This document shows, piece by piece, positions 28,745-60,458 of a stretch of 64,000 nt of DNA (its first letter is position 1; each line of letters opens with the position of its first letter). Origin of the DNA: Muribaculaceae bacterium Isolate-037 (Harlan) (GTDB lineage: Bacteria > Bacteroidota > Bacteroidia > Bacteroidales > Muribaculaceae); the NCBI GenBank assembly GCA_003762615.1, contig RIAZ01000009.1, positions 1 through 64,000 on the forward strand, written 5' to 3'. The translations under genes and the position numbers were made by a program. Below the pieces are notes generated by a model. The model was not told where the DNA came from, ran no database searches, and worked only from the letters and a program-made list of their open reading frames with translations.

Positions 28745-29299
28745 TCAGGAGCCGGCTTCTGTAACTTCCGACATATCGAACCAGTATTCAGGCATGATAG
28801 CCTCATTGTCCGGTTCCATCATGGTGCCGATTACGGCAAGACCGATAGCACCATCGGTGTTTGCCTCGCGGCTCCTTACGTTTGCATACGGAAGCACCAC
28901 ATACTGATTGTCTTCCGTCAAGGCGATAAGTGCCTTCTGGATTTCGACGATACCGCGAGGACGCTTCCACGATGTTGCGGTTGCTACGCCACCGAGGAAC
29001 TCGGCCTTGGTAAAGTAGTCATACTTACCGATAGTCCAGTTGAAGGTGACTTCGCCCATCGTTTTTGTTCCCATACGGTAGATTGAACCGGTGAGCTGAT
29101 TGCGGTAGCCGTCCTGTTGGGCTTCGGTTTCCTCAAGAGTCCATGTGTCCTGATGAACATTCTTGACCTCCTTAGTTGTCGTTGCCTTGAGCAGAGCTGC
29201 CAGAAGTGCGCCGGTAAGGTCGGCAGTGATGTTGCTGGGGTCTGTATAGAACAGACGCTTGATGCCGATTGCTGAGATTTTGGGGGCGTTTTCGTTAAC
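28745..29299 (-). CDS. Major tail tube protein; predicted GUU start
   Basis: Protein of 184 residues. The reading frame is preceded by TAA (29303-29305) and CGA, then GTT at 29297-29299; the translated start is VNENAPKISAIGIKRLFYTD. The first ATG in frame lies 75 codons in (29074) and would remove about 40 percent of a continuous, coding-quality sequence. ATG, GTG and TTG are all absent upstream of it. The late C-terminal half (FNWTIGKYDYFTKAEFLGG) has the beta layout of tail tube subunits, and the gene lies between head-tail connector genes and the chaperone-like gene. A CCTTAAA element is 20 bases upstream of the GTT. See the finding on GUU initiation. Confidence 0.75.
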   Translation of the reverse strand, partial: VNENAPKISAIGIKRLFYTDPSNITADLTGALLAALLKATTTKEVKNVHQDTWTLEETEAQQDGYRNQLTGSIYRMGTKTMGEVTFNWTIGKYDYFTKAEFLGGVATATSWKRPRGIVEIQKALIALTEDNQYVVLPYANVRSREANTDGAIGLAVIGTMMEPDNEAIMPEYWFDMSEVTEAGS

Positions 29300-29324
29300 T
29301 CGTTATAAGGTGTTTAAGGGTTAA

Positions 29325-29720
29325 TTATTCCATTGTGTTCATTGCCTTGAAAAGCACTTTGACATTTATGTAGTGAGCCTTTAGGTCTTTGTTCTCAAGT
29401 GGTCTTGTTGACTGCACCACATACTTGTATGCCGTTCCGTCAAACTCACCAGTGCCATGAAATGACTTTATCGCCATCCTTTCAAGTTCATTCAGACGGA
29501 TAAGGTCTGCATTGCCTTGCTTGGTATCAGCGACAAAAAGATTGACCTCAAGAAAGCCCTTTTTCCAGATGGAATCGGGGGATTGCTCTTTTGGATGTAT
29601 CACCACACGTCCTTTCTCATCGACAATGCCGGTGGGAACATTACCATCCTGAAAGACGGGCAGTCCAAAGATTGCGCTGTCTTTATAAAGGATATTCGCT
29701 GCGTCAGTAGTGGTAATCAT
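29325..29720 (-). CDS. Tail terminator / completion protein
   Basis: Protein of 131 residues, mixed alpha/beta, with the strand-rich C-terminus (AYKYVVQSTRPLENKDLKAHYINVKVLF) of minor tail completion proteins. Located between the HK97 gp10-like gene and the tail tube, the place of a tail terminator. Overlaps the upstream gene by 4 bases. Confidence 0.55.
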   Translation of the reverse strand: MITTTDAANILYKDSAIFGLPVFQDGNVPTGIVDEKGRVVIHPKEQSPDSIWKKGFLEVNLFVADTKQGNADLIRLNELERMAIKSFHGTGEFDGTAYKYVVQSTRPLENKDLKAHYINVKVLFKAMNTME

Positions 29721-30031
29721 TTTTTCTTAAATGCTTTTCTAAGTTTTTCTTCCGCGAACAGGGCCGCACCGCCTATCACATCTTTTCCGTTTGCCTCAAG
29801 CTCATCGGCATAACCACTGTCATTATAAAGAATCAGATTATTGTTGTCATCAACTTCGTAATGATTGCTTGCGCGGGTCTTGCCGGTGACATCATGGTAA
29901 TCGCCATTTTCAATAGCGTATTCAACCGCTTCCTGACCGATTTCCTCTACTTTCTTGCGAACCTGTCGGTTGAATTTTGAGAAAGCCGGACGGACATCCT
30001 TAAAGTCGAACTTACACATAGATTTCGGCAT
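29717..30031 (-). CDS. HK97 gp10-like tail/neck protein
   Basis: Protein of 104 residues with helical N-terminus and the segment DVTGKTRASNHYEVDDNN, the T-G-x-T/L-R motif of HK97 gp10-like neck proteins. Its start overlaps the previous gene by 20 bases. Confidence 0.6.
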   Translation of the reverse strand: MPKSMCKFDFKDVRPAFSKFNRQVRKKVEEIGQEAVEYAIENGDYHDVTGKTRASNHYEVDDNNNLILYNDSGYADELEANGKDVIGGAALFAEEKLRKAFKKK

Positions 30032-30341
30032 ACGGCAGATAGTTTAGTGTCTTGGTCTTGATGATATGACCCTCGCCCCGGATACTTCCGTCTTCCCTCA
30101 AGCACCGTATATAATCGCCTGTCATTATGTCCGGGGTGTTGCCATCAAGGACAATATGATATGACGGAACGACTACTGTGCCATCGGATAGCTTGACTTC
30201 TTTATCTCCATTGTCATCACATCTGCACTTGCATACCTCAGACCATTCTTCGGCTGATTCGCCTGTAATGGGTCTTCCGTACTCATCATTGACCTCTCCG
30301 GCAATGACGCGCTTCTGCAATGTATGTGGGGCATAGTTCAT
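30012..30341 (-). CDS. Head closure protein (head-tail joining)
   Basis: Protein of 109 residues of the head-tail joining type: NYAPHTLQKRVIAGEVNDEYGRPI at the start, then a beta barrel with SYHIVLDGNTPDIMTGDYIRCL. Position after the connector and before gp10-like is as expected for siphophages. Confidence 0.6.
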   Translation of the reverse strand: MNYAPHTLQKRVIAGEVNDEYGRPITGESAEEWSEVCKCRCDDNGDKEVKLSDGTVVVPSYHIVLDGNTPDIMTGDYIRCLREDGSIRGEGHIIKTKTLNYLPYAEIYV

Positions 30342-30343
30342 AG

Positions 30344-30685
30344 TTACCAGTTATCAGTGCGGTCTATAATGGAAGATATGCCAAGTAAATCCAAGATGTC
30401 TTCATTGGGGGTGATGCCCCATTTGCGACAAAGCCATAGATAATACTTGCCTACGGATTCATAATTCCATGACATTGAAAAGCCACTTTCGCTTACGTTA
30501 GACAGCCGGGGAGCAAGGATGCACTCCTCAAGGGTCTTTGTCAGTGCCACGCCTACAACTGACGGTTCTATCGCCATGACATCAGCGTCAAGGTCAAGAC
30601 CGGTCGTAATAGACAAATCGATAAGTTGAGCCTCAGATATTCCGTAGGCTTTCAACTTATCGGATATGTAAGCGCGAATGGTCAT
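30344..30685 (-). CDS. Head-tail connector protein
   Basis: Protein of 113 residues, mostly helical with DLLGISSIIDRTDNW at the C-terminus. Its place directly after the capsid region and before the head-closure gene suggests a gp6/gp15-like connector ring. No stronger evidence is visible. Confidence 0.5.
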   Translation of the reverse strand: MTIRAYISDKLKAYGISEAQLIDLSITTGLDLDADVMAIEPSVVGVALTKTLEECILAPRLSNVSESGFSMSWNYESVGKYYLWLCRKWGITPNEDILDLLGISSIIDRTDNW

Positions 30686-30690
30686 AGGGG

Positions 30691-31080
30691 TTATTCGTTG
30701 TCGTTGGAATCGTTTTCAGTTTCTGATTCGGTTTCAGATTCAGCGTTTTCATCGCCTGCCTGAGCATCGTCAGGGCTGGGATTGGCATCTTCGCTTTCGG
30801 ATGTGGGTGCCTCCGCTTCTATGGGATTTTCCTTTTCCTTTTTGGAAGACTTGCCTTTACCCTTGCCTTTGCCGGATGCCTTTACACCACCATTCTTTGC
30901 TGGAGTCGGGGTTGCTGAATCATTGCCGTTGTCTACGGGAGCTTCTTCAAGGGGTTTGACAAGACCGCGAGCGGCCAAAGCCACTGCACGGTCATTGTCA
31001 AATTCCTTTACTTCTCCGGGCGCGTAGATAACCTTGTGGTCATGCTTTGCGCGGAAAGGTACGAGGACGATTGCTTTCAT
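30691..31080 (-). CDS. Virion-module protein with acidic low-complexity tail
   Basis: The first 45 residues form a small domain (KAIVLVPFRAKHDHKVIYAPGE), followed by a long disordered part with a Lys-rich stretch (KGKGKGKSSKKEKEN) and then Glu/Ser/Asp repeats. The N-terminal domain resembles small capsid-region proteins of Bacteroidales phages. Overlaps the capsid gene stop by 4 bases. Confidence 0.55.
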   Translation of the reverse strand: MKAIVLVPFRAKHDHKVIYAPGEVKEFDNDRAVALAARGLVKPLEEAPVDNGNDSATPTPAKNGGVKASGKGKGKGKSSKKEKENPIEAEAPTSESEDANPSPDDAQAGDENAESETESETENDSNDNE

Positions 31081-32174
31081 TCCTGAACTATCTGGGTGTC
31101 GAGCGTATAGATACGGTCAACATTGTTCAACACAGGCACAACCATCGCTTCGGCAGCGGTGAACTCGCGGAGCGGGTCGGTTGTGGAATACTTCTTGGCA
31201 AGGATGAACTCATCGGCTTTCTGATAAACCACACCGTTGACGGGGCGGTTTTCCTCTGCCAGCGTAGTCCATACGAGGTCGCCAAGTTCCTCATCGCAGA
31301 CAAAGGTCATTCCACCTTTCTTCCACGGCTTATGCGACTTCTTATCGCCGTTGATTTCTGTCTTGATGGTGCGGTTCACGCGAGTGAGCTTAACGCCCCA
31401 CTTCTTCATAAAGACCCCTGAAACCGTCTCAAAGTCAAGGACAGGAACGGTTGTGCCGGCGGTCAGTGCGATGCCCTTGTCAAAGGCATACTGATTGCGA
31501 ACCTGATTGTTACGATAAAGAAGCTGGAGGGCTGTCTCATCAAGATAGATTTCAGTGATGGTGTTGCCATCCTCCTCTGCCTTGTCGAAGACTTTCTGAA
31601 CATCGTCAAGGGGAGTGGATGCTGCCGTGTTCCAAAGGTCGGAAACAAGGAACTGATTCTCTTCGTAGAAGTTCATGTCGATGCGGACACCGGTGCCGTT
31701 GCTGCGCTCGGAAACACCTACGCCGGAAGAAAGCTCCGAAAGGAAGATGTCTTCAATACGCTCCCATACAGCCTCTATACAACGAGCCACGTCGTTGAAT
31801 ATCTTGTCGATGATAGTCTGGAGCGGAACGTTCTGAACAATCATCGCGTCCACGTCCTTCATCTGCTTTTCAGTCAGATAAAGTTTCAGACCGAGCTTGG
31901 GAATGTCGCCGGAGATGGTTTCGATGGTGTCACGGCTCTTGAGCGGAAGCTCCGAGTCAAGTGCCACTACATCGGCAGCCACACGGGTGTACTGGGCAAG
32001 GATGGATGCCCAACGACCATCAAGCGAGAACTGTGTGCGAAGTTTCTGCTTATAAAGATAAGTAAACTCGCGATTCGCACTGTTCGCGTTTTTCTCGTTC
32101 ATGCGTTCCACGATAGCCAGCACAAGGCCGGGAAAGAAACGCTTGGTGTAATCGTAAAAAATTGACTGTGTAAC
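31077..32174 (-). CDS. Major capsid protein; predicted GUU start
   Basis: Protein of 365 residues. The frame opens after TAA (32181-32183), which is also the stop of the upstream gene, then ATC AGA and GTT at 32172-32174. Translation from GTT reads VTQSIFYDYTKRFFPGLVLA, a plausible capsid N-terminus; the first ATG (32099) would drop 25 residues of it. The rest fits an HK97-type major capsid protein encoded between scaffold and connectors, with a long helix-rich centre and the C-terminal ADEFILAKKYSTTDPLREF. The spacing to the upstream gene is 6 bases, and both genes are in the same frame, so readthrough is a second possibility. Confidence 0.8.
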   Translation of the reverse strand, partial: VTQSIFYDYTKRFFPGLVLAIVERMNEKNANSANREFTYLYKQKLRTQFSLDGRWASILAQYTRVAADVVALDSELPLKSRDTIETISGDIPKLGLKLYLTEKQMKDVDAMIVQNVPLQTIIDKIFNDVARCIEAVWERIEDIFLSELSSGVGVSERSNGTGVRIDMNFYEENQFLVSDLWNTAASTPLDDVQKVFDKAEEDGNTITEIYLDETALQLLYRNNQVRNQYAFDKGIALTAGTTVPVLDFETVSGVFMKKWGVKLTRVNRTIKTEINGDKKSHKPWKKGGMTFVCDEELGDLVWTTLAEENRPVNGVVYQKADEFILAKKYSTTDPLREFTAAEAMVVPVLNNVDRIYTLDTQIVQE

Positions 32175-32180
32175 TCTGAT

Positions 32181-32612
32181 TTAGGCCTCCTCGTCCTGTT
32201 CAAAAGAAATGTTTTTAACTGCGGCCGTGAAAGCGTCCATGATGCTATCCATAGGATAGGGTGTCAGGGTGGGATTCACGATGCCATGAGTCATGATGCT
32301 CGCGGCGGGCTTGTCTTTGCTGATGGAGCGATAAAGCACACCAACATACTTTGCGCCCGTGGGAAGTGTGTCATAGCCGGCGGGGGAAGCGGGAGTCTCA
32401 CCGACAGCCTCGGTTGCCGCCTTGATAGGCATGGGCGCGTAGTTTCCATCGGCTTTCTTGATGATGACGTGACCGGCATAGATGTTGTCTTCGGGATGGT
32501 CTGAGCAATCCAAAGTACGACCACCGGGGATACCGCTGAAATACTTACGGATTACGACTGAATCTTTTCCGAAGACCACCTTTGTTCTTTTGGGTGTAAT
32601 GTCATTCTTCAT
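32181..32612 (-). CDS. Head decoration-like protein
   Basis: Starts MKNDITPKRTKVVFGKDSV at ATG 32612, 20 bases after CCTTAAC. Protein of 143 residues, beta-rich, containing YAGHVIIKK and TGAKYVGVLYRSI, the kind of sequence seen in head decoration proteins encoded before the major capsid gene. In frame with the capsid gene across a single stop. Confidence 0.6.
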   Translation of the reverse strand: MKNDITPKRTKVVFGKDSVVIRKYFSGIPGGRTLDCSDHPEDNIYAGHVIIKKADGNYAPMPIKAATEAVGETPASPAGYDTLPTGAKYVGVLYRSISKDKPAASIMTHGIVNPTLTPYPMDSIMDAFTAAVKNISFEQDEEA

Positions 32613-32636
32613 AATCACAGTTGGGGTTAAGGGTTG

Positions 32637-33374
32637 TTACTTTACAATGCTTGCAGCCATAGAAGCAAGTTCCTCTTTCGTGGGGTCGTTGCCACTCAGG
32701 GGGAAGATGTTCTTAGTCCCGGGCAGGAGATTGGTATTGATGTTGTTCGCAACCTTTGTAAGAGTTTCGGTGATGACTTCATCGGATGCGTCTTCCGCAA
32801 GAGTGAAGCCCTCGTCGATACGCCACTGGGGAACGCCCAACTCTTTGGCTTTTGCCTGTATCATCGCAGTGCGTGCTGCTTTGGCTGCGGCAGCTTCCGC
32901 TTCGGCATTCTTGTCGGACAGTTCTTTGACCGTCTTTCCAAGTTCCGTATTCTTGTCGGTAAGAGTCTTGATGGTGGCAGTGTACTGAGCCTCGCGCTGC
33001 TTGTTGGCTTCTTCCATCTCCTCCATTCTCTTCAAGACGGATGCCATGTCATTGTCCGGCTGGGGTTTGGGTTCGCCTTTCTTCTTGGCTTCCTCCTCAG
33101 CCTTTTTGCGGGCTTCTTCTGCTTCCTGCTCCTTTTTGCGAGTTTCTTCTTCATGCTTTTTACGCTCTTTTTCAAGCGCGTCTGTGACACGCTTATCGTT
33201 GGCTTTCTGAAGACCCTCCAACTCTTTACGCTGACAAGCCACAACAGCATCGATGTTATCGTCAGTCACAAGACCGGTGGCTGCAAGGGACTCGGCTTTT
33301 GACATCAGATATTCATCGCCTAACCCAAGAGAGGAATACTCCTGTTTTAGTTTTGCAAAGATTTTAGCTTTCAT
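32637..33374 (-). CDS. Capsid scaffold protein
   Basis: Protein of 245 residues with a long charged coiled coil (residues 55-160; EKERKKHEEETRKKEQEAEE) and a short C-terminal domain, as in phage scaffolds that template capsid assembly and are later expelled. First gene of the capsid module; the 191-base upstream gap holds a terminator and promoter-like elements. The C-terminus (NDPTKEELASMAASIVK) probably contacts the capsid. Confidence 0.7.
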   Translation of the reverse strand: MKAKIFAKLKQEYSSLGLGDEYLMSKAESLAATGLVTDDNIDAVVACQRKELEGLQKANDKRVTDALEKERKKHEEETRKKEQEAEEARKKAEEEAKKKGEPKPQPDNDMASVLKRMEEMEEANKQREAQYTATIKTLTDKNTELGKTVKELSDKNAEAEAAAAKAARTAMIQAKAKELGVPQWRIDEGFTLAEDASDEVITETLTKVANNINTNLLPGTKNIFPLSGNDPTKEELASMAASIVK

Positions 33375-33498
33375 TGTTGTAATTTTGGGATTTCGTGATT
33401 AAACTACGCCAAGATAGTACGAATATTCCGTACACGTTAATATTGGATTGCATCAGTTGCGACTATATTGTTAAGGTCGTAAGATTAAGCAAATAAGT

Positions 33499-33531
33499 AA
33501 AAAAAGACGCATCGTTTCACAACGACACGCC
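33499..33531 (-). terminator. Rho-independent terminator before the capsid module
   Basis: An 11-bp stem (GGCGTGTCGTT / AACGATGCGTC with three G-T pairs, GTGA loop) is followed by TTTTTTT on the minus strand. It insulates the capsid operon from the accessory block upstream. The remaining bases 33375-33498 contain no gene and presumably the capsid promoter, which I cannot place with confidence. Confidence 0.8.
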
Positions 33532-33544
33532 CTGCAAAAGTACA

Positions 33545-33552
33545 CAAAGTTA
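33545..33552 (-). promoter_or_regulatory. -7-like TAACTTTG before the terminator
   Basis: TAACTTTG on the minus strand 14 bases before the terminator hairpin at 33531. A promoter directly followed by a terminator would give a short RNA or an attenuated capsid transcript. Confidence 0.4.
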
Positions 33553-33566
33553 ACAATCTTTTTACC

Positions 33567-33788
33567 TTAAAACATTATCTCGTCTATCCGGATGTAATGG
33601 TATGTGTAGTCATCCGGGTAAAATTCAACTTTTCCATTTGAGGTCATAATGATGTAGTGGTCATCCGCGCATTTATCCACGATGCCTACATAATGGGATA
33701 CATTCTGACCCGTCGGATAGTTTTCGCGGAGTAGGATATTCAGCCCTACCACATCATTAGCATTATGTAGTCTTTTCCAATTAGCCAT
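33567..33788 (-). CDS. Small hypothetical protein, 73 aa
   Basis: Starts MANWKRLHNANDVVGLNILL at ATG 33788, overlapping the stop of the radical SAM gene. Beta-rich C-terminus (HYIIMTSNGKVEFYPDDYTY). Last gene before the terminator. Unknown function. Confidence 0.5.
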   Translation of the reverse strand: MANWKRLHNANDVVGLNILLRENYPTGQNVSHYVGIVDKCADDHYIIMTSNGKVEFYPDDYTYHYIRIDEIMF

Positions 33789-33789
33789 A

Positions 33790-34632: not shown

Positions 34633-34649
34633 CGTTTCTTTCTTTAATG

Positions 34650-36015: not shown

Positions 36016-36021
36016 AGTCCT

Positions 36022-37730: not shown

Positions 37731-38516
37731 TTAGAGTCCGAAAAGTTCCTTTGCCATCATAATGTCAGGGCGCGTTGACTTGATGAATCGTTTGCCACCG
37801 GCACATTTCAGGCAAGGTTTGGCGTTCCGAAGCTGATTGAACAGTGTCATAAATAAATCGGTATTTACATTGCCGAATGACGGGCATAGGCACGATTCAG
37901 AAAGATGCACATCGCCTTTATAATCCACCATAGGCTTGCAGAATGTTCCTTGAGGCTTCATCCCGTTCATCCGGTGCAACGATGACATTTGTTTGAAGAG
38001 AAGATGACCATTGACGCAAGACATAAAATAGGGATTCTTTGCCACTTCTGCCTGTGCTTCCTCGTCATTACAAGCTCTTCCGAGGTCTTGCATATAGATT
38101 GTTTCGTTGCTGATTTTGACCTTATCTATGGATTCAATCTCTGCCTTATGCGCCATGATGAAATCATAATCCTTATACCATTTGGGGTGTGAATAGACTT
38201 GCATACCGACAAAGGATTTAAGCCGGGATAACTTTTCCACCATATCCTTTTGTTCCGGATACCACATCCCATTAGACGTGACTGTAAAAACGGCTTCTTT
38301 ACCCAACAGTCTATCAAACATCTTGCAGAACTCAAAGAACTGCGGATGTTCCGTAGGCTCACCGCCTGAAATGATATACAGGGGACATCTCAAGAATCGA
38401 CCAAACTCAAGGGCTTTCCTGAATGTTGCTTCCGTCATAAGCGGCCCATCCGGGAGCGCGTTCTGCAAGCAGTGTCGGCATCCCTCTTGGCATCGGTTTG
38501 TTATCTGAATTAGCAT
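37731..38516 (-). CDS. Radical SAM protein with C-terminal cysteine cluster
   Basis: Protein of 261 residues starting MLIQITNRCQEGCRHCLQNA, with the C-x3-C-x2-C site at residues 9-16. The C-terminal part holds CKPMVDYKGDVHLSESCLCP and CLKCAGGK, an auxiliary SPASM/twitch-like cysteine cluster. That combination is typical of enzymes modifying peptides or proteins. The substrate is unknown. Confidence 0.75.
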   Translation of the reverse strand: MLIQITNRCQEGCRHCLQNALPDGPLMTEATFRKALEFGRFLRCPLYIISGGEPTEHPQFFEFCKMFDRLLGKEAVFTVTSNGMWYPEQKDMVEKLSRLKSFVGMQVYSHPKWYKDYDFIMAHKAEIESIDKVKISNETIYMQDLGRACNDEEAQAEVAKNPYFMSCVNGHLLFKQMSSLHRMNGMKPQGTFCKPMVDYKGDVHLSESCLCPSFGNVNTDLFMTLFNQLRNAKPCLKCAGGKRFIKSTRPDIMMAKELFGL

Positions 38517-39794: not shown

Positions 39795-40577
39795 TTATAC
39801 AATGTTCACGCCCTCAATAATGCCGTTACCGAGGTTGTTTTTCTCTGATATGCTATTGGGATTGATGGGCGATAACTTGACAAAGAAATAATCCTTATCA
39901 AAGTATTTCGCCAACTTTTCAGCGTTGAAGTCGGATTCATCCACAAGCGTAAGGTTGATTGTGGTCTTGAGATTGCTTTCCGTGCGGATTTGACCCAGTT
40001 CGGCTATGGTCATCTTCTTGGGATAGGGTATCAGCCAATTCCGCTTTTCATCGTCAAAGCTATGCAGACTTATCTGGAGGGTTACATTGCCCTTGATGAA
40101 AGAAAAGTCACTGCCGACAATGCCGATGGTCGAAACATAGTGATGGGTGTTCGGATATTTTTCCGTAATGCGCTTGATAGCCTCCTTTACGGCTTCAATG
40201 TTCAAGAAAGGCTCACCCATTCGGGTGTAGTTGATTTTGAACTCCTTTGCATCAGTCGGATTGAACCCTGCTTTTTCAATGGCAAATTCCACCTGACCGA
40301 TAATCTCATCTGCCGTAAGATTACGATAACGCTTCATATTGCCGGTCGCGCAGAACTTACAATTGACCGGACATCCGCTCATTGTCGATACGCCAATCAT
40401 CCAGCGTTCCGCACGACTGCCGAGATTGTTGTTATCAAGAAAATTCTGTTTGCGTCCGATTGCATCCTTTGTGTAGAATGGCAGAAACGTGTCTGTCGTT
40501 TCCACAAGCATCCCATCGGCAAGTTCAAGGCAATACACCGTGCCGTTCTTAAATGATTTCTGCTTCTTGATTTTCAT
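39795..40577 (-). CDS. RlmN/Cfr-like radical SAM protein
   Basis: Protein of 260 residues with CPVNCKFCATGNMKRYRNL (C-x3-C-x2-C) and YTRMGEPFLN, both signatures of the RlmN/Cfr group that methylate RNA. It is much shorter than RlmN (about 350-380 residues), lacking the N-terminal domain, and the C-terminal methyl-carrying cysteine is not evident. It may have a different substrate. Third radical SAM gene of this block. Confidence 0.75.
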   Translation of the reverse strand: MKIKKQKSFKNGTVYCLELADGMLVETTDTFLPFYTKDAIGRKQNFLDNNNLGSRAERWMIGVSTMSGCPVNCKFCATGNMKRYRNLTADEIIGQVEFAIEKAGFNPTDAKEFKINYTRMGEPFLNIEAVKEAIKRITEKYPNTHHYVSTIGIVGSDFSFIKGNVTLQISLHSFDDEKRNWLIPYPKKMTIAELGQIRTESNLKTTINLTLVDESDFNAEKLAKYFDKDYFFVKLSPINPNSISEKNNLGNGIIEGVNIV

Positions 40578-41803: not shown

Positions 41804-42073
41804 ATGGCAAAATTCAGAATCAAGAACATTGTCGCTGCTAAGGGCATGACCCTTAAAAGCCTCGCGGAAAAGATGGGAATCACCCCTCAGACACTCGGCA
41901 ACATCGTTAATGAAAAGGGCAATCCTAACATATCCACGCTTGAGCGAATTGCAAAAGTGCTGGAAGTGCCGGTATCTTCTTTATTCACAGATTACCTTGA
42001 GCCAAATTCCGCTATCATCATCTGTCCGCAGTGCGGCGCACGTATCGACATCCAGACCGGTTCATCAAAATGA
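41804..42073 (+). CDS. XRE-type repressor with zinc ribbon, upstream of fmt
   Basis: Protein of 89 residues: helix-turn-helix MAKFRIKNIVAAKGMTLKSL to ERIAKVLEVPVSSLF, then CPQCGARIDIQTG, a zinc ribbon half-site. ATG at 41804 is chosen as the domain start. Its stop overlaps the fmt ATG (ATGA at 42070-42073), so regulator and formyltransferase are translationally coupled. It probably controls its own divergent promoters. Confidence 0.8.
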   Translation: MAKFRIKNIVAAKGMTLKSLAEKMGITPQTLGNIVNEKGNPNISTLERIAKVLEVPVSSLFTDYLEPNSAIIICPQCGARIDIQTGSSK

Positions 42074-43344
42074 AAGCTCCAAGATACCGCGTTGGTCATT
42101 TGGTAAATGTGGTTGGGCATTGCGCCGGCGACCAATTTGAAAATCAGTTTTTCGTGCCGTGCAGAATCCTTTGCCCGGATGAAGATGGCAATTACTTAGT
42201 TAAGGTCAATCAGGCCGATGGATATAGCATTGTTCCGGAAGACGCAATATCGGCTTATCCCGAATATGACCAAGAAAAGCCGGTGAATCGGAATAATATC
42301 AGGATTGTATTTTTCGGAAACGGACATTTCGCTGTGCCGACTCTAAAGATGCTCGTTGAAAAGGGATATGATGTGGCTGCTGTCGTGACTATGGAGAATA
42401 AGCCTTGCGGTCGCGGAAACAAGTGTTGCCCATCACCTGTCAGTGTTTATGCGGAAGAGGCAGGTCTTCTTGTATATCAGCCATCGCATCTTCAACTTAA
42501 ATCAGAATCTTTTCTTCAAAAAATCCGCAATCTGAATCCCACGTTGGGAGTTGTGGTTGAATACTGCATATTACCATCTGAATTGTTCCGCATACCTAAA
42601 TGGGGAGTCATCAATCTCCATTCATCGCTTCTTCCAATGTACCGGGGCGCATCCACTATCACATCCGCAATCAAGGACGGAAGCGCGATGACCGGCATCA
42701 CCACTTTCGTAATCGATAAGGGTGTGGATACAGGCAAAATCATCAACAACCTCGGAATCTACATAGGCCCGGAAGAAAGCGCGGAAGAAGTGCATATCAG
42801 ACTTCGCAATTTCGGTGCGGATATGATGGATGATGCAATCCAGCGTATTGGTCATTCGTGCAATGGAGTTCCGCAGTCAGAACTTATATGCGATTTCTTT
42901 CAACCGAGCCATGCGCCCAAGCTCTACCGCAATGATGCCTTTATCCGTTGGACTGATTCCGCAGAAGTCGTTCATAACTTCATACGCGCCCATTCATCAG
43001 TTATTTGTGGCGAACAATATCCAAAGACCCCGGCTATCGCAGGGTCAGTGCCGACTGCATGGACTTCGGTAAGGTTGCTTGAGGCAGATTCCGCAACCGA
43101 TGTGAAGATTCACAAGGCAAGTCTTACTGACATTCCTCGCGGCTTCCGCGCACCCGGAGAATGGTTCTGGGAGAATGGCAAACTGATGGTCGCCTGTCAG
43201 GATATGTTGCTTTCGATTGATATTTTGCAGTTGCCAAACAAGAAGCGTATGACTGCCAAAGAATCCCACAATGGTTTCCGTGGAGCTTGTAAAGGCTTCT
43301 GCGCGTTGACCATTGATAATGAGGAAATAACTTCTGAACAATAA
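42070..43344 (+). CDS. fmt: Methionyl-tRNA formyltransferase, phage-encoded, with N-terminal extension
   Basis: Protein of 424 residues, about 110 longer than bacterial Fmt. Residues 1-80 form an extra beta-rich, SH3-like domain (YRVGHLVNVVGHCAGDQFEN). The catalytic domain follows: RIVFFGNGHFAVPTL, CGRGNKCCPSPVSVYAEEAG, and GVINLHSSLLPMYRGAS with the conserved N and H, then GVDTG with the catalytic D. The C-terminal tRNA-binding domain is also present (APKLYRNDAFIRWTDS, FIRAHSS, KRMTAKESHNGFRG). These match Fmt rather than sugar formyltransferases, which lack that C-terminal domain. Fmt adds formyl to initiator aminoacyl-tRNA, recognising a weak 1:72 pair. Coupled to an XRE repressor, so expression is controlled separately from other genes. 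The genome also encodes an initiator-like tRNA (60386-60458). Confidence 0.9.
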   Translation: MKAPRYRVGHLVNVVGHCAGDQFENQFFVPCRILCPDEDGNYLVKVNQADGYSIVPEDAISAYPEYDQEKPVNRNNIRIVFFGNGHFAVPTLKMLVEKGYDVAAVVTMENKPCGRGNKCCPSPVSVYAEEAGLLVYQPSHLQLKSESFLQKIRNLNPTLGVVVEYCILPSELFRIPKWGVINLHSSLLPMYRGASTITSAIKDGSAMTGITTFVIDKGVDTGKIINNLGIYIGPEESAEEVHIRLRNFGADMMDDAIQRIGHSCNGVPQSELICDFFQPSHAPKLYRNDAFIRWTDSAEVVHNFIRAHSSVICGEQYPKTPAIAGSVPTAWTSVRLLEADSATDVKIHKASLTDIPRGFRAPGEWFWENGKLMVACQDMLLSIDILQLPNKKRMTAKESHNGFRGACKGFCALTIDNEEITSEQ

Positions 43345-54666: not shown

Positions 54667-54677
54667 ATCTGGTGATG

Positions 54678-55976
54678 TTAATATATTCCTAAATCTGATT
54701 TCTTTACTTTCTTCGGCTTGATTATCTTGCCCAAGATGCGACCGAGGATGTAGTATCTTGTCGCGTCGATGCTATGGTTAAAGGCATCTATCGGAACGTT
54801 GATGAAATTGCCGTCCTTGTCTTTATCCCATACATAGTTCCGCAATTCTTCCTGTACGTTCAACGACCGCTTAGTGACATAGATGTTGTCAAAGGATTTC
54901 ATCTTTTCAATGCCGGCGATGATGCTTCCAGCCGGCTTCGCCACCGGGTAGATGATGACACCACCCAAAGCGATTTCATCAATCAGTCGCGGGTCTGCGC
55001 TGTCTGCGAATACGAATGAATCATCTTCGTTTAATGCCTTTATCAGTTCGGAAGACAGCATCCCGGTCTTATAGAATTGCTCGTCGATGTAAAGGTCATT
55101 ATTCAGGATACCGCACTTCACACACGCGCTCACATCATTGGAATAACCGAAGTCAAGACCACGCGCCACGTTCTTGCAGTTTTTCGGAAACTCATTGACT
55201 ATGCCCCATTTCTTGAAGACCGCACCCTCAGCGACATCTGCCCATTGACCCATGAAGATGTGGGCGTATCGTTCCGGATTGCGCTTCTTCATCTCCTGTG
55301 CTTGCTTGATGAACTCTTCCGAAAGGTTTTTTATATTGTCAAGATAGGTCGTATGGATGTGAAGCACTTGCGGATGCGTGGAAATCTGGACCGGCACACC
55401 ATCATAGTAAACTATCTTGTGGGTGTCCTTGATGTATTTCTGATAGATGAAGTGATTGCTGTCAGTCGGATTCATTATGATGATAATCCGATTCTGAATA
55501 CCGGGCTGACGTATGGAAAAGGCGATTGTTTCAAATTCGCGGTCAGAAGTCCATTCTTCTGCCTCATCGCATACAAATGTGGTGATTCCGTGAATTGATT
55601 TCAATTTGGCGGTCTGATTACCGGATGATGTCTTGATACCACGGAACATGATACGGCTGCCGGTCATCTTATTCACGATGTCCGTCTTGGTTGTGTGGAA
55701 ATACCTCGTTGTGCCGTCAAGTTCTATCTTTTCAAGAAACTCAGGGATAACAGAAATGCTTGCGCTGGTCATCGTGTATCGGGTATAAAGAATCTTATGC
55801 ACAATCTTATCTGCATCCGATTTGGAAAAGCCCCTGCGCTTCAATTCAAATGAAAGGCGTTGTATGAAATCACCGATTCCAAAAGATTTACCTGAGCCAC
55901 GACCCCCAGTGACAAGAATCACGAAATGTTCCTTGTCGGTATAGAGTGGGTAGTATATCTCATGGTTGATAATCAT
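54678..55976 (-). CDS. Terminase large subunit (PBSX-type)
   Basis: Protein of 432 residues. Walker A is VTGGRGSGKSFG (residues 23-34), Walker B is FVCDEAEEW, and the coupling motif follows at NRIIIIMNPTDSNHF. The C-terminal nuclease has the metal-binding aspartates in ARGLDFGYSND, FADSADP and HSIDATRYY. It packages DNA into the prohead. It overlaps the small subunit by 4 bases. Confidence 0.95.
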   Translation of the reverse strand: MIINHEIYYPLYTDKEHFVILVTGGRGSGKSFGIGDFIQRLSFELKRRGFSKSDADKIVHKILYTRYTMTSASISVIPEFLEKIELDGTTRYFHTTKTDIVNKMTGSRIMFRGIKTSSGNQTAKLKSIHGITTFVCDEAEEWTSDREFETIAFSIRQPGIQNRIIIIMNPTDSNHFIYQKYIKDTHKIVYYDGVPVQISTHPQVLHIHTTYLDNIKNLSEEFIKQAQEMKKRNPERYAHIFMGQWADVAEGAVFKKWGIVNEFPKNCKNVARGLDFGYSNDVSACVKCGILNNDLYIDEQFYKTGMLSSELIKALNEDDSFVFADSADPRLIDEIALGGVIIYPVAKPAGSIIAGIEKMKSFDNIYVTKRSLNVQEELRNYVWDKDKDGNFINVPIDAFNHSIDATRYYILGRILGKIIKPKKVKKSDLGIY

Positions 55977-56647
55977 AATTCCGGCTCGTCGTTCTTATGT
56001 TTGTGTTCCACTTCTTTTCTTATCCAACTTTCAATATCGATGCCCTGCTCAATATCTGTGGGGATGCCTGTGTCTTCTTCCTTGACGATGGGATTCTCGC
56101 CATATCCGTACTTCCGTCCTGTCGTATTCAGATAGAAGCGCATCATCCATTCCGATGGGAAACGATTCCATCCCTTAAACTCATCCTTACCTTTGACCCC
56201 ACCTAACGCAAGGATGCGACCGGCTATGTCAAGCTGTTCCAGAAATTCAAGGTCACGTTCTGCCATTATGTCCGCGAACATCGGCTCTTGAGCAATCCAT
56301 GACTGCAATTTCGTCCAGCCGATTCCGAACTTCTTCATAAGGGCTGTCCGCTTCCCCTTACATTCCGCCCACACTTCCGCAAACAAAGCCGGTGACGGCA
56401 TATCTGCGCCCTGTTCACGCGCACGCGCACGGGCAGACTCCAATGTGCTTGAAATTTTTTTGCTACGCCTTTTTGCTTCATCAAACTGCCAGCGACTGAT
56501 ATTGAGCTTATCGGCTATTTCGGTGTCATAGAAACCATCATAAGCCAACTGCTCGATGCGAGAAAGCAATTCCGTATCCTCAAGGTTAATATCGGATATG
56601 GATACTTTCTTGCGTGTCACATCGTTGCTAATTCGCTTCTTCGGCAT
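55973..56647 (-). CDS. Terminase small subunit-like DNA-binding protein
   Basis: Protein of 224 residues directly upstream of the large subunit with a helix-turn-helix (LAYDGFYDTEIADKLNISRW) near residues 32-55 and a second helix-turn-helix-like segment around 100-120. The C-terminus is acidic. Position, overlap and HTH content support a DNA-recognition subunit. Confidence 0.7.
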   Translation of the reverse strand: MPKKRISNDVTRKKVSISDINLEDTELLSRIEQLAYDGFYDTEIADKLNISRWQFDEAKRRSKKISSTLESARARAREQGADMPSPALFAEVWAECKGKRTALMKKFGIGWTKLQSWIAQEPMFADIMAERDLEFLEQLDIAGRILALGGVKGKDEFKGWNRFPSEWMMRFYLNTTGRKYGYGENPIVKEEDTGIPTDIEQGIDIESWIRKEVEHKHKNDEPEL

Positions 56648-56681
56648 TGTCGTAATGATGAAAATGAGAATTTATACTAAG

Positions 56682-56749
56682 TTGCGTGTGCGGGAGTCGA
56701 ACCCTGCTATTTCCGCTATGCGGCGAGATGACCGATTCTCTAACACGCA
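56682..56749 (-). other. tRNA-like element lacking a normal anticodon arm
   Basis: Acceptor TGCGTGT / ACACGCA (7 bp), TA linker, D-arm GAGA...TCTC (4 bp), T-arm with TTCGACT loop and GGG/CCC. The anticodon arm is only CCGC-ATA-GCGG, about six bases short, and the T-stem has a mismatch or bulge. No CCA is encoded. The stop of the preceding gene lies inside its 5' end. It may be a decayed tRNA or a mimic. Confidence 0.55.
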
Positions 56750-57066
56750 CGTCTGAATGAAATCAGATTTTCTATTTTCCCCCCCCCAAGTGCATTTTTC
56801 AGACCCATATAGGTTGAACGAGCATATTGACGGTTAGCCATTCTGCTTACATTTTCATGGTTCAGGATAGGCTCGCCATGTACGTTACGAGGGGAATTTG
56901 CTCGGTCGCGAGCATACTGTCGGGTCGCTTGAATATTGCTGATGTACCGATTGCCAACACTGATGGCTCGCTCGCGTCTTGCTTGGCTGACATTCCGATT
57001 GGAATAAATGCGGAACATCTGATTGCTGATTTCAGCTGCTGATTTGGTTCTTTGCTTTCTTCTAAC
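56740..57066 (-). CDS. Small arginine-rich virion-module protein B; predicted GUU start
   Basis: Protein of 108 residues. Its frame opens after the stop of 57112-57387. GTT at 57064-57066 begins VRRKQRTKSAAEISNQMFRI; the first ATG (57018) is 16 codons in, inside a continuous basic region. CCTTTAACAC lies 20 bases upstream of the GTT. Highly basic, with Arg pairs throughout and a Gly run (ALGGGKIENL). DNA- or capsid-binding function is likely from charge. The neighbouring genes are terminase and lysozyme. Confidence 0.65.
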   Translation of the reverse strand, partial: VRRKQRTKSAAEISNQMFRIYSNRNVSQARRERAISVGNRYISNIQATRQYARDRANSPRNVHGEPILNHENVSRMANRQYARSTYMGLKNALGGGKIENLISFRRAC

Positions 57067-57111
57067 TCGGCTATATGTGTTAAAGGTTGAAGATTCATCA
57101 AGCCGCCACTG

Positions 57112-57387
57112 TCAAGCAACGGCCTGATGGTAACTGAAAATTCTCATCTGCCCCCCCCCGGATGCAGTGCGAAGAGCCTCCGCAAATCTGCCAGTGCCTA
57201 CCTTGCGGTTACGTTCACGGGAGTTTTCGTCCGCAAATCCCAAGTCAGGATTGAGTCCTCTTGCGCGAATTGCGGAATTGGCTGCGTTGATAATGCTCAT
57301 GTCGCCAAAGCGATAATTTCTTGCATCGCTCGCGCTGAACACCCTGCGCATTTGGGATGCAATGTCATTGTAAGATTTCCGTCTAAC
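57112..57387 (-). CDS. Small arginine-rich virion-module protein A; predicted GUU start
   Basis: Protein of 91 residues. GTT at 57385-57387 is immediately preceded by in-frame TGA, so the protein cannot start earlier. Translation reads VRRKSYNDIASQMRRVFSAS; an internal ATG (57351) is 12 codons in. CCTTAAAAAC lies 19 bases upstream. Similar in style to protein B: VRRK start, basic N-terminus, Gly run (TASGGGQMRIF). Both begin with V-R-R-K after a GAGTTAGA context. Confidence 0.7.
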   Translation of the reverse strand, partial: VRRKSYNDIASQMRRVFSASDARNYRFGDMSIINAANSAIRARGLNPDLGFADENSRERNRKVGTGRFAEALRTASGGGQMRIFSYHQAVA

Positions 57388-57464
57388 TCAACTGATGTTT
57401 TTAAGGATTATGGTCAGCCGGGGTGTGAATCCGACTGACCGATTTATGATTGATGACTAAGGGG

Positions 57465-58058
57465 TCAATCGTATTTCAGACCGATGAATGTGATGTCATT
57501 GATACGTCGCGTCCAGCCTTTGATGAATTTCTTTTGGCTCGGCTTCCTTGCAACGATGTCATTCACGAACTTGATTCTCGCGTTGTGGATTTCGTCGAAA
57601 AGCCTTTTGGGGTCGCTTGCGTTCAATGCCGCCATAGTCTTTGGGCCTACAACACCATCCTGCTTCACACCGAGGATGCGCTGCGGTATCTTGATGCCAC
57701 TGCTTCCGCTTGCCCATACCCAATCGACAAGAATGTTCGCAAGGGGCTGACTCTTGATTTCGTCCGCTTTCCACTTATCCCAGAAAAGCGTCTTGAGGAC
57801 ATCGCGCCACTGTTCATAGGAAATGTTACGGAGTCTTGTGACTGTGGGGACGGGATAGCCTTTTGACCGACAATAAGCCTTGTATGTGCCTATCGTGATG
57901 CCGCACATGGTCGCGCCTCCTGCATCGTCGGGGTCGTTAGCAAATCCGGTCTTCCTTGCCTGTTCAAAAATCTGAGCCGGGGGAAGACTCAGATAGCGTT
58001 TGTTCACCCCGGTTTCAAAGTGAAGAAAGAAAGGTATGATTTCGTCTATTTTTGCCAT
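57465..58058 (-). CDS. GH108 N-acetylmuramidase endolysin
   Basis: Protein of 197 residues. The glycoside hydrolase 108 catalytic region has FETG near residue 14, where the family has EGG with the catalytic glutamate, then NDPDDAGGATMCGITI. The C-terminal part is a peptidoglycan-binding_3 domain (LGVKQDGVVGPKTMAALN). It degrades the host cell wall at lysis. ATG at 58058 lies 17 bases after CCTTAAC. The holin-like gene is 57 kb away in the window coordinates. Confidence 0.85.
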   Translation of the reverse strand: MAKIDEIIPFFLHFETGVNKRYLSLPPAQIFEQARKTGFANDPDDAGGATMCGITIGTYKAYCRSKGYPVPTVTRLRNISYEQWRDVLKTLFWDKWKADEIKSQPLANILVDWVWASGSSGIKIPQRILGVKQDGVVGPKTMAALNASDPKRLFDEIHNARIKFVNDIVARKPSQKKFIKGWTRRINDITFIGLKYD

Positions 58059-58076
58059 AGTAAGTATTGTTAAGGA

Positions 58077-58994
58077 TTATTCGTCTTCGTCATCATCGCC
58101 AAACTCCAACTTATGTTGAAATTCCTCGCCATTGACGTATTTTGCCATCGGGTCAAAGCCGTATTCTTCCATAAACCGCACTTTCTCGCTCGGTGTCTTG
58201 AAGCTGATGACAACATAGGACAGCATACCGCCATCCTTATCGACATCATTCTGGCTTGCTATGCGGTCTTTGATTTTCTGCACCTCATTGTGCCGGGCTA
58301 TCTGATTCGCTTCATTATCGGAATAGAAATCAGTGGAGCGGTCTAACTTGTGATTCTCGCCGCTTTCCTTTGTCATTTCATCGTGGATGGCAAGGTCTTG
58401 ACGCTCTCCGACAACCGATTCCTTTGACCAGTCCTTATTTTCAGTTTGACCGGGTGCTGACGGTTCTGATTCGGATTCAGATGTTATTTCCGTTTCTGTG
58501 CCGTCTTCGTCATCATCGCCAAAGCCGAAATCCATATTGTCGAAATCGCCATAATCGCCAAGACCGAGAATCTGCAAGTCCATATCCTCAAATCCAGCGT
58601 TCACATAGTCTATTTCCGACAACAGGGAGCGCAGCATATCGTCATCGTATGTACCCTGAACCGCCTTATTGTTCATAAAGAGATTCTGCTCCTTTTCCGT
58701 CTTTTCGTCGAAGTCAACGACCTCTACACGAAATTCATAATCGTTATCGCCCGTTTCTGGGTTATAGCGATTGACTGCATCCATGATGCTGACTTTCTGA
58801 TGCCCGGATACAAGGTTGCCGGTGCGAATGTTCCAAACGACACCGCCAAGCAACCCGACAGTCTGCATATTCTTCTTGAGCTTCTTCCGTGCATCCTCGC
58901 TTATGACACGCGGATTGTAGGAAGCAAACTGGATTTCGCTTCTTCTGACCGTGCGCTGCTCTGCTTGTTTTATCTTGTTTTCCTTTGTCTTCAT
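58077..58994 (-). CDS. ParB-like (IbrB-type) nuclease-fold protein
   Basis: Protein of 305 residues. N-terminal ParB/Srx domain: SYNPRVISEDARKKLKKNMQ, then LLGGVVWNIRTGNLVSGHQK, the G-H-x-K/R motif. The centre has an acidic Asp/Glu-rich linker (GFGDDDEDGTETEITSESES). The ATG overlaps the PAPS reductase-like stop. ParB-like plus PAPS reductase-like genes are a recurrent pair beside phage terminases, as in IbrA/IbrB; their function is not settled. Confidence 0.75.
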   Translation of the reverse strand: MKTKENKIKQAEQRTVRRSEIQFASYNPRVISEDARKKLKKNMQTVGLLGGVVWNIRTGNLVSGHQKVSIMDAVNRYNPETGDNDYEFRVEVVDFDEKTEKEQNLFMNNKAVQGTYDDDMLRSLLSEIDYVNAGFEDMDLQILGLGDYGDFDNMDFGFGDDDEDGTETEITSESESEPSAPGQTENKDWSKESVVGERQDLAIHDEMTKESGENHKLDRSTDFYSDNEANQIARHNEVQKIKDRIASQNDVDKDGGMLSYVVISFKTPSEKVRFMEEYGFDPMAKYVNGEEFQHKLEFGDDDEDE

Positions 58995-59755
58995 TATTCC
59001 GCTTCTGATTCGGTTTCTATACGCTTGATGATTTCAAGGACTTCTTTCTCCTGACCATGAGGCAGGATGCCGTTTTCGTAGTCAAAGATAAGTTTCTCGC
59101 AGAATGGGAACTCGCGCACCGTGCGCTGATAATCCCGTGGGAATCTTTGACGCAGGATAAGCAAGGAGCGCAAATCCACACCGAAGCCCTGACTCACATC
59201 TTTGGGATTGTAAACGAAAGGCTTTATAAGATTCCGCATTTCAATATATTTCAGAACCTCCTTGTTAGTCCATATCGCCAACGGATAGACCATGCCTTTA
59301 TCAGTGATATATGTGCCATTCCGTTTCTTGAATGTCAGAAGACGCATCCGTTTCATATAGCCATCTACGCCTTTCATGCCACTGAAAGCCCATTTGATAC
59401 CTGTTTCCTGACGTACCATTTCCTCAACTTCGCCAACCTTACGCGGCTTAATGTCGGGATTGCCCTCACCGAACTGAAAGAATCCATATCGGTCGTAATA
59501 GTCGCGCTGATAATGCTGAATCTGTCGTATCTCCACATTGGGGTATTTCTTAACCGCCCATGCAAGATAAGGCTTAACGTGGTCAAGACCCGGCACAAGC
59601 CACATATAATAGCAGATGACTTTCTTGAATACAGGGGATAGCATATCAAGCAATGCGATGCCATCCTTTCCACCGGCTGAATAAAATAAAACGGCAGTAT
59701 CCGTCTTTTGACGGATACCCCGGATTATCTGCATAGTTTCTTCGTACTTGGTCAT
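58994..59755 (-). CDS. PAPS reductase-family (IbrA-type) protein
   Basis: Protein of 253 residues with the PP-loop SAGGKDGIALL (residues 26-36) and WAFSGMKGVDG. The fold activates ATP-linked sulphate or nucleotide substrates. The G-G-K-D-S/G motif is intact. Paired with the ParB-like protein. No classic APS/PAPS cysteine is seen in the C-terminal part, so true sulfonucleotide reduction is unlikely. Confidence 0.8.
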   Translation of the reverse strand: MTKYEETMQIIRGIRQKTDTAVLFYSAGGKDGIALLDMLSPVFKKVICYYMWLVPGLDHVKPYLAWAVKKYPNVEIRQIQHYQRDYYDRYGFFQFGEGNPDIKPRKVGEVEEMVRQETGIKWAFSGMKGVDGYMKRMRLLTFKKRNGTYITDKGMVYPLAIWTNKEVLKYIEMRNLIKPFVYNPKDVSQGFGVDLRSLLILRQRFPRDYQRTVREFPFCEKLIFDYENGILPHGQEKEVLEIIKRIETESEAE

Positions 59756-59766
59756 AAGGTGTTGCG

Positions 59767-59955
59767 TTAGCCTGTTGCACCACCTGCGACGCGGAATGCC
59801 ATACGGAGGTCTTGACGTCGCTGTTCACGACTTCCGATCTGGCTTCTTCCTTCTATCACTCCCGCCGCAGTACGACGGGCTACAAGGCGACCACCTGCAC
59901 CGGCACCATTCATGTTCCGACGGGGGCCATAGTTGTTGTTGATTCTTCTCTGAAC
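59767..59955 (-). CDS. Small arginine-rich protein C; predicted GUU start
   Basis: Protein of 62 residues. GTT at 59953-59955 is directly preceded by in-frame TGA. It reads VQRRINNNYGPRRNMNGAGA and ends RMAFRVAGGATG. The first ATG is codon 15. CCTTTAAAAC lies 19 bases upstream. Highly basic and glycine-rich, similar in style to proteins A and B. Stops 11 bases before the PAPS reductase-like gene. Confidence 0.6.
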   Translation of the reverse strand, partial: VQRRINNNYGPRRNMNGAGAGGRLVARRTAAGVIEGRSQIGSREQRRQDLRMAFRVAGGATG

Positions 59956-59982
59956 TCAGCGATTGTTTTAAAGGGTGGATAA

Positions 59983-60354
59983 TTATTCGGATACGTTTTC
60001 GGTGGCGATGATGTCACCCAGTGTGTACCACACCTGACAAACATAATACTCGTTGCCGTTTTCCTCAAAGGTCAGGTCATTGCCATTCTCGTCAGTCAGA
60101 ACGACAAACTCAGATGACTTGACTTCTATGGTTAGACGTGGAGCATCCTTTTTGCGACCGCAGACGAATTGAAGTGCATCGTAATGAACCGATGTGACGA
60201 TTGTAACGTCATCCCCGTTCTCATCCGTTTTGTCTTCTTCAATTACATACTTCTTTGCGTTGTTGGGATAAACGTAGCGTTTCTCAACCGTCTCTTCGCC
60301 TTTCAGAATAGCCTGAAAGTGCTTTTTGTTGGTGTGTAGGGTTAACTGTTCCAT
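59983..60354 (-). CDS. ASCH-like protein, 123 aa
   Basis: Starts MEQLTLHTNKKHFQAILKGE; TVEKRYVYP follows, giving the L-x-G-x-x-T-x-E-x-R pattern of ASCH domains, then LQFVCGRKKDAPRLTIEV. Such domains bind RNA or modified nucleotides. It is encoded directly after the tRNA, which may be meaningful: ASCH-like proteins are thought to act on RNA. Function here is unknown. Confidence 0.55.
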   Translation of the reverse strand: MEQLTLHTNKKHFQAILKGEETVEKRYVYPNNAKKYVIEEDKTDENGDDVTIVTSVHYDALQFVCGRKKDAPRLTIEVKSSEFVVLTDENGNDLTFEENGNEYYVCQVWYTLGDIIATENVSE

Positions 60355-60385
60355 CGTTTTTAGTAGTGAAAGTTTATTTGATTAG

Positions 60386-60458
60386 TGGCGGGTGTCAGAC
60401 TCGAACTGACGACCTCCAGCAAGTTAAACTGGCGAGCTTCCAACTGCTCCAACCCGCG
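60386..60458 (-). tRNA. Initiator-like tRNA with anticodon AAC (reads GUU)
   Basis: Full cloverleaf on the minus strand. Acceptor CGCGGGT / ACCCGCC with C1:C72 mismatched and six pairs; D-arm GAGC...GCTC; anticodon arm CCAGT-TTAACTT-GCTGG with anticodon AAC; 5-base variable loop; T-arm GTCAG-TTCGAGT-CTGAC; discriminator A73; CCA not encoded. The unpaired 1:72 and the A11:U24 pair are hallmarks of bacterial initiator tRNA, and the 5' CGCGGG and AGCTCG/AGGTCG blocks resemble tRNA-fMet. The three G:C pairs of the initiator anticodon stem are absent. Position 37 is U, which is unusual. A34 is also rare in bacteria outside tRNA-Arg. See the finding on GUU initiation. Confidence 0.85.

What the first reader, a model, noticed from the sequence alone, without database searches (positions are those of the whole stretch)
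28745..60458. Predicted GUU translation initiation system: GUU-starting structural genes, a matching initiator-like tRNA and phage Fmt
Seen in the sequence: five virion-module genes (31077-32174 capsid, 28745-29299 tail tube, 56740-57066, 57112-57387 and 59767-59955) lack ATG, GTG or TTG at their natural 5' end. Each has an in-frame stop upstream and then a GTT in GA-GTT context. The genome encodes a tRNA with anticodon AAC that pairs with GUU and has initiator hallmarks, and a complete methionyl-tRNA formyltransferase. Known: bacterial initiator tRNAs are recognised by Fmt through the unpaired 1:72 position, and anticodon-changed initiator tRNAs can start translation at the matching codon. 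Inference: the phage carries its own initiator tRNA that starts late proteins at GUU, possibly with (formyl)valine, and its own Fmt to formylate it. This could keep late genes silent until the phage tRNA is made, escape host surveillance of initiation, or outcompete host translation late in infection. I know of no described phage system of this kind.
Basis: partly seen in the sequence, partly recalled or inferred. Interest (0 to 1): 0.97.

Follow-up and report, generated by a model that had tools for sequence, protein, structure and literature searches.

The report
Phages with their own start codon
A group of gut-bacterial phages likely begin some of their own proteins, in this phage the main coat protein among them, at valine codons instead of ATG, using a start-type transfer RNA that they carry and whose anticodon matches those codons, which would be a second, natural start signal for making proteins.

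Summary
Five window genes (capsid, tail tube, three small genes) have no ATG/GTG/TTG at their natural 5' end but GA|GTT. All 12 IMG/VR capsid relatives found keep GA|GTT; in more distant capsids ATG, or in two contigs GTA, sits at that codon (one outgroup has one extra residue). The start codon follows the anticodon of a phage initiator-like tRNA: AAC with GTT, TAC with GTA, GAC with GTC and, in one gene family, also GTT, as wobble allows. For a small Gly/Arg-rich gene near the tRNA, 28 loci are GAC/GTC, 11 AAC/GTT, 4 AAC/ATG, none crossed. The tRNAs keep the 1:72 mismatch (24 of 25), G2:C71, C3:G70 and A11:U24, lack the three G:C anticodon-stem pairs, and nearly all carry U37-U38, which could pair with the GA before these starts. 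A phage Fmt with an N-terminal extension occurs in all eight GTT-capsid records of 49 kb or more and in the GTA phage, not in six ATG-capsid records. Initiation, valine charging and formylation are inferred; nothing was measured. The held library gave no report of such a system.

The parts
60385..60458 (-). Initiator-like tRNA, anticodon AAC, loop UUAACUU, C1xC72 mismatch, A73, CCA not encoded
   Evidence: ARAGORN; conserved in relatives; host initiator also C1xC72
31077..32174 (-). Major capsid protein (PF03864), start codon GTT at 32172-32174 with GA at 32175-32176
28745..29299 (-).
57112..57387 (-). Small Arg-rich protein of the 'VRRRK' group, GA|GTT start
56740..57066 (-). Small Arg-rich protein of the 'VRRRK' group, GA|GTT start
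59767..59955 (-). Small Gly/Arg-rich protein, GA|GTT start; its relatives start GTC where the tRNA is GAC
42070..43344 (+). Phage methionyl-tRNA formyltransferase-like protein, ATG start, with a ~75-residue N-terminal extension
59983..60354 (-). Small protein between the tRNA and the Gly/Arg-rich gene (phrog_625; the gene in the same place in phage BS-TP2 is annotated ASCH-domain, but Pfam gave no hit for either)
58994..59755 (-). PAPS-reductase-like gene, next to the Gly/Arg-rich gene; used as neighbour for the tree

Best explanation
The phage carries a tRNA built like an initiator but with anticodon AAC, and five of its genes, capsid included, lack ATG and have GTT in GA|GTT at their 5' end, so it likely starts these proteins at GUU with its own tRNA. 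Shown: the tRNA and its features, the matching codons, and their covariation across phages. Inferred: host valyl-tRNA synthetase charges it with valine (A35, C36 and A73 are recognised valine determinants); Fmt formylates it through the 1:72 mismatch, with the phage Fmt likely boosting this where the abundant capsid depends on it; IF2 and the 30S subunit place it at GUU. The unusual U37 and U38 would pair with A-1 and G-2 of the mRNA, giving a five-base start signal (GAGUU, GAGUC or GAGUA), which would substitute for the missing three G:C pairs and for the Shine-Dalgarno contact that Bacteroidota mRNAs lack. As the host's tRNA-fMet cannot pair well with GUU, these genes would stay nearly silent until the phage tRNA is made.
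For: (1) Register: all 12 close capsid relatives have GA|GTT, as do two genome contigs. Of 15 further capsid loci, 2 are GA|GTA (one is the query's own contig) and 13 are ATG at the same codon. Outgroups L140 and L141 are in register and L163 has one extra residue. (2) Covariation: Gly/Arg-rich gene, 44 loci: GAC/GTC 28, AAC/GTT 11, AAC/ATG 4 (one lineage), 1 contig ends before the tRNA, none crossed. Arg-rich group: AAC contigs GTT 15 of 15; GAC contigs GTC 17, GTT 12, ATG 1; TAC contig GTA 1 of 1. (3) The tree of the neighbouring gene needs five changes of anticodon class. (4) Among 25 distinct tRNAs, 1:72 mismatch 24, G2:C71, C3:G70 and A11:U24 all 25. (5) GA at -2/-1 is rare at ATG starts and none of 116 CAT initiator-like tRNAs has U37-U38. 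(6) Fmt: in 8 of 8 GTT-capsid records of 49 kb or more and in the GTA-capsid phage; in 0 of 6 ATG-capsid records. (7) Of 395 genomes of the window's phylum only the window's own contig has this tRNA pattern.
Against: No protein, ribosome or tRNA measurement exists. The three G:C anticodon-stem pairs of initiators are not kept, and one tRNA (L178) has a U1:A72 pair. The mechanical ORF census is noisy: in AAC contigs GTT was third after GA (24, behind AAT 32 and AAA 31; GTC 6, GTA 4); in the GAC set GTC was second (18, behind AGA 23; GTT 8, GTA 7); in the TAC set GTA was first (4; GTT 0, GTC 0); and 116 control contigs with CAT initiator-like tRNAs gave GTT 18, GTC 13, GTA 15. Four AAC loci of one lineage start the Gly/Arg-rich gene at ATG. 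The tail tube homologues with ATG (L140, BS-TP2) start a few codons further in, not in register. No Fmt was found in 50 of 57.6 kb of BS-TP2, in G017, G023, or in the stretches near the tRNA held for GAC phages. Some searches fixed U37-U38 or GA in advance, so those counts are not independent. G-2 would form only a wobble with U38.
Confidence: 0.88

Rival explanations
1. The genes really start at internal ATG, GTG or TTG codons, and GA|GTT is a DNA or mRNA element with another role.
For: The mechanical ORF list offers internal starts, and the BS-TP2 annotation begins the Gly/Arg-rich gene at an internal ATG.
Against: Homologous capsids carry ATG at the GTT codon; the internal ATG of the tail tube would drop 75 residues, of which those from residue 11 align with a homologue; the third base of the codon follows the phage tRNA anticodon, which no DNA element would be expected to do.
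Confidence: 0.04
2. The tRNA is an ordinary elongator tRNA-Val that supports valine codons, and GTT is read at low rate by the host tRNA-fMet.
For: ARAGORN calls it tRNA-Val.
Against: 1:72 mismatch and initiator determinants are kept in 24-25 of 25 sequences; pyrimidine at 37; GTT is not an overused codon in the window genes counted (161 against GTC 216, GTG 179, GTA 148); this rival does not predict that start codons covary with the anticodon.
Confidence: 0.03
3. The tRNA is an initiator, but its main benefit is resistance: with its anticodon arm rebuilt it would escape host defence or toxin nucleases that cut the initiator tRNA-fMet, so late proteins continue when the host initiator is destroyed.
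For: The anticodon stem and loop differ clearly from those of the host initiator. VapC-type toxins cutting tRNA-fMet are recalled, not looked up.
Against: No such nuclease was sought here; most annotated genes of BS-TP2 start at ATG (74 of 77), so they would not be protected.
Confidence: 0.2

Closest known systems
Bacterial initiator tRNA-fMet (here the host's own, G000:C80)
   Same: 1:72 mismatch (host also C1xC72), G2:C71, C3:G70, A11:U24, similar D and variable regions
   Different: Valine anticodon instead of CAU, U37-U38 instead of A37-A38, U31.G39, no three G:C pairs
Engineered anticodon-changed initiator tRNAs (seen only as passages of the review PMC11231383; Chattapadhyay 1990 known only as cited there and from memory)
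   Same: Start at the codon that matches the changed anticodon; extra Fmt was used with an amber initiator
   Different: Natural, phage-borne, covarying with several genes, and with a rebuilt anticodon loop
Phages with suppressor tRNAs and reassigned stop codons (recalled)
   Same: A phage tRNA changes how the phage's genes are decoded
   Different: Here the start codon, not a stop codon, gets a new reading
   Same: Initiator-like phage tRNA
   Different: Would read ordinary ATG starts

Membership tests
Bacterial initiator tRNA | Mismatch (no Watson-Crick pair) at 1:72 | tested here: met
   24 of 25 distinct sequences; not forced by any search pattern
Bacterial initiator tRNA | G2:C71, C3:G70 and A11:U24, formylation determinants (passages of PMC7949028) | tested here: met
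   25 of 25; A11:U24 was fixed by some of the search patterns, 2:71 and 3:70 were not
Bacterial initiator tRNA | Three G:C pairs 29:41, 30:40, 31:39 | tested here: not met
   31:39 is U.G in 24 of 25, 29:41 A:U in 17 of 25
Bacterial initiator tRNA | CAU anticodon | tested here: not met
   AAC, GAC or TAC
Bacterial initiator tRNA | Formylation, IF2 and P-site binding | not testable with these tools
   needs biochemistry
Elongator tRNA-Val | Paired 1:72 for EF-Tu and purine 37 (recalled) | tested here: not met
Elongator tRNA-Val | Valine identity A35, C36, A73 (passages of PMC9976931) | tested here: met
   all three in the window tRNA; A73 in 24 of 25 distinct sequences
Methionyl-tRNA formyltransferase | Formyl_trans_N and C domains, catalytic Asn-His-Asp, GRGxK loop | tested here: met
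   the roles of the residues are recalled
Methionyl-tRNA formyltransferase | Domain layout without N-terminal extension | tested here: not met
   about 75 extra residues, present in all 7 aligned phage sequences

The most novel reading that the evidence does not exclude
Phages have evolved a second, orthogonal start signal of protein synthesis: an initiator tRNA with rebuilt anticodon loop reads a five-base signal GAGUN, its anticodon and the start codons of its client genes have switched together several times, and other phages use other codons, perhaps even AAC (asparagine). Clients can be translated only when the phage tRNA is present.
Probability: 0.8. Interest if true: 0.98.

Novelty: categorically new. 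Interest (0 to 1): 0.96.

Why it matters
ATG, GTG and TTG are treated as the bacterial start codons, all read by one kind of initiator tRNA. A natural second initiator with its own codons would mean that gene finders miss or truncate phage proteins, would give a natural parallel to engineered orthogonal initiation, and would test directly what an initiator tRNA needs, since it seems to work without the three G:C pairs and with extra pairing upstream of the codon. A cultured phage (BS-TP2 on Bacteroides salyersiae) and a Muribaculaceae isolate carry versions, so it can be tested now.

Tried and rejected
Internal canonical starts, elongator tRNA and chance ORFs were considered and rejected, as told in the rivals. 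The mechanical census alone is weak, because chance ORFs dominate it and its control contigs also give GTT, GTC and GTA; I rely on homologous start sites. The 4582-5448 hit, the 320-aa 'VKVV' hit of G017/G021/G025/G026 and several hits in the TAT, GCT and ACT classes look like chance and were dropped. The TAT, CAC, CAG and CCC initiator-like tRNAs were not pursued. AlphaFold of Fmt was poor (mean pLDDT 50), so no fold search was made. An alignment of the Gly/Arg-rich protein had no searchable stretch. One search used a pattern with one N too many and was replaced. Ten answered paper searches listed no report of the system; preprints and most subscription papers are not held. In one search the start positions of L289, L303 and L299-L302 were set by hand after looking at the sequence. 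For the tree L254 was dropped as too short, identical rows were merged, and L293 was labelled GAC from its start codon because its contig ends before the tRNA.
Full report
WHAT IS THERE. It is a phage genome with terminase, portal, capsid, tail, Rha and lysis-type genes. The only tRNA called in the window lies at 60385-60458, minus strand, anticodon AAC. Its sequence resembles the initiator tRNA of the host genome, which itself has a C1xC72 mismatch. The clearest differences are in the anticodon stem and loop: host TTGGG-CTCATAA-CCCAA, phage CCAGT-TTAACTT-GCTGG.

THE START SITE. One search returned twelve capsid relatives in IMG/VR (72-100% identity) that match from residue 1, and all twelve carry GA|GTT there; so do a Bacteroides MAG contig and the Muribaculaceae Isolate-036 contig. 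More distant homologues L140 (56%) and L141 (32%) have ATG at the same codon and L163 (50%) has ATG one residue earlier. A capsid search with a GTA-start homologue returned 16 loci; one of them, L003, was already known as GTT. Of the other 15, two (the query's own contig and L318) are GA|GTA and 13 have ATG in register, none of these preceded by GA; several of the 13 are near-copies. Start codons ATG, GTA and GTT thus replace each other at one aligned position. The tail tube keeps GTT after GA in 6 of 6 close relatives; in two distant homologues (L140, BS-TP2) an ATG lies a few codons further in, not in register.

COVARIATION WITH THE TRNA. A scan of IMG/VR for initiator-like tRNAs whose first anticodon base is not C gave 52 loci: AAC 18, GAC 14, TAT 5, TAC 4, GTC 4 (ordinary tRNA-Asp by their look), GTT 3 and four singletons. 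Several contigs with GAC have GA|GTC starts and contigs with TAC have GA|GTA starts, including the capsid of L230. A search with the Gly/Arg-rich protein alone, without using the tRNA, returned 44 loci. ARAGORN called a matching tRNA upstream in 42 of them and a loop pattern found one more. In all, 28 have a GAC tRNA and GA|GTC, 11 an AAC tRNA and GA|GTT, 4 of one lineage an AAC tRNA and ATG, and one contig ends before the place where the tRNA would lie. Collapsed to different tRNA-gene pairs this is 17, 5 and 1. If the 17 and 5 were independent the chance of perfect sorting would be about 4e-5, but they share ancestry. The tree of the adjacent PAPS-reductase gene (41 rows) needs five changes of anticodon class in all; for AAC alone, well-supported branches force three gains or losses. 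Two long branches meet in that tree (L237 and G023), so their place is unsure. In the Arg-rich group, AAC contigs show GTT in 15 of 15 rows, the TAC contig GTA, and GAC contigs GTC 17, GTT 12 and ATG 1. The GTT rows break one-to-one matching but are what G34 wobble predicts. In that script the start was taken as the first GA|GTN or ATG, so the GA there is by construction, and some rows are the same phage held twice.

THE TRNA AS INITIATOR. In 25 distinct sequences 1:72 is C:A 14, C:U 4, C:C 3, U:U 3 and U:A 1; 2:71 and 3:70 are always G:C and C:G; 11:24 always A:U. These are the formylation determinants listed in passages of PMC7949028. The three G:C pairs are not kept: 31:39 is U.G in 24 of 25. 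U37-U38 is constant in these 25 because that script required it. In the scan that did not require it, all 18 AAC, 13 of 14 GAC and 3 of 4 TAC had it, whereas none of 116 CAT initiator-like tRNAs did. U37 and U38 could pair with the A-1 and G-2 that precede the GTT, GTC and GTA starts, by A:U and G.U. In the same phages GA is rare before canonical starts (1 of 77 and 2 of 46). Pairing upstream of the start codon has a precedent in the title of Esposito 2003, seen only in a reference list.

FMT. The phage Fmt keeps both Fmt domains and the catalytic residues. It has a conserved N-terminal extension of about 75 residues that Fmt of E. coli lacks. It is found in all eight records of 49 kb or more that hold a GTT-start capsid (window, G001, G003, G007, G010, G011, G013, G014), in G019 and G020, whose contigs lack the capsid, and in the GTA-capsid phage L230. 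It was not found in G027, a 70-kb record with the clade's tRNA whose end, judged from gene spacing against G003, lies just before the Fmt place, nor in the other tRNA-bearing records (7-42 kb). It was absent from six records with ATG capsids, from G017 and G023, and from the 50 of 57.6 kb of BS-TP2 that were searched. Many of these are fragments. This fits the idea that formylation by the host limits a valyl initiator when an abundant protein depends on it. A review passage states that Fmt overexpression was combined with an engineered amber initiator to good effect (PMC11231383).

CONTEXT. Bacteroidetes lack Shine-Dalgarno sequences in their mRNAs (abstract and passages of PMC6847099), so a longer tRNA-mRNA helix could help to fix the start. 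Two GTT-start genes of G017 and its kin nevertheless have GGAGG 4-6 bases upstream. The tRNA is not a usual chromosomal gene: among 395 genomes drawn from the window's phylum only the window contig itself matches the pattern, though that pattern would miss variants with another D arm such as that of BS-TP2. BS-TP2, a cultured phage of Bacteroides salyersiae, has the GAC tRNA, and downstream of it the Gly/Arg-rich gene with GA|GTC, annotated from an internal ATG.

WHAT IS NOT SHOWN. Charging with valine, formylation, initiation, expression timing and the benefit to the phage are inferences. The library searched holds no preprints and few subscription papers, so novelty rests on ten answered searches and on my own knowledge.

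Noticed in passing
L229:2555-3675 (also L241, L251): Initiator-like tRNA with anticodon GUU (C1xA72) directly upstream of a 333-aa ORF that has no ATG, GTG or TTG for 29 codons and seems to start at AAC after AAGGAG; C37 could pair with G-1. A possible asparagine start; no homologue in the phage collection.
   Followed up: partly
L144:4721-4791 and L151:9484-9554 (G003:44721-44791, G007:69484-69554): Second tRNA-like element in clade relatives whose anticodon loop is only about four bases long.
   Followed up: no
L163:13646-13721: A record with an ATG capsid (50% identical) carries an initiator-like tRNA-Met(CAT) with U1xU72 near the capsid, a possible ancestor state.
   Followed up: no
L275, about 3479-3552: A tRNA with GAC loop but unusual D arm and T loop that ARAGORN misses; the neighbouring gene still starts GA|GTC.
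   Followed up: partly
L231 and L236: Single initiator-like phage tRNAs with serine anticodons GCT and ACT, loop ending UU.
   Followed up: no
window:33790-34632, 37731-38516, 39795-40577: Three radical-SAM-like genes in one phage, the first below the Pfam cut-off.
   Followed up: no
window:34840-35541: Protein with a Tad2-like (Thoeris anti-defence) domain and a crAss001_48 domain.
   Followed up: no
window:12449-13974: Amidoligase and glutamine-amidotransferase-like gene pair.
   Followed up: no
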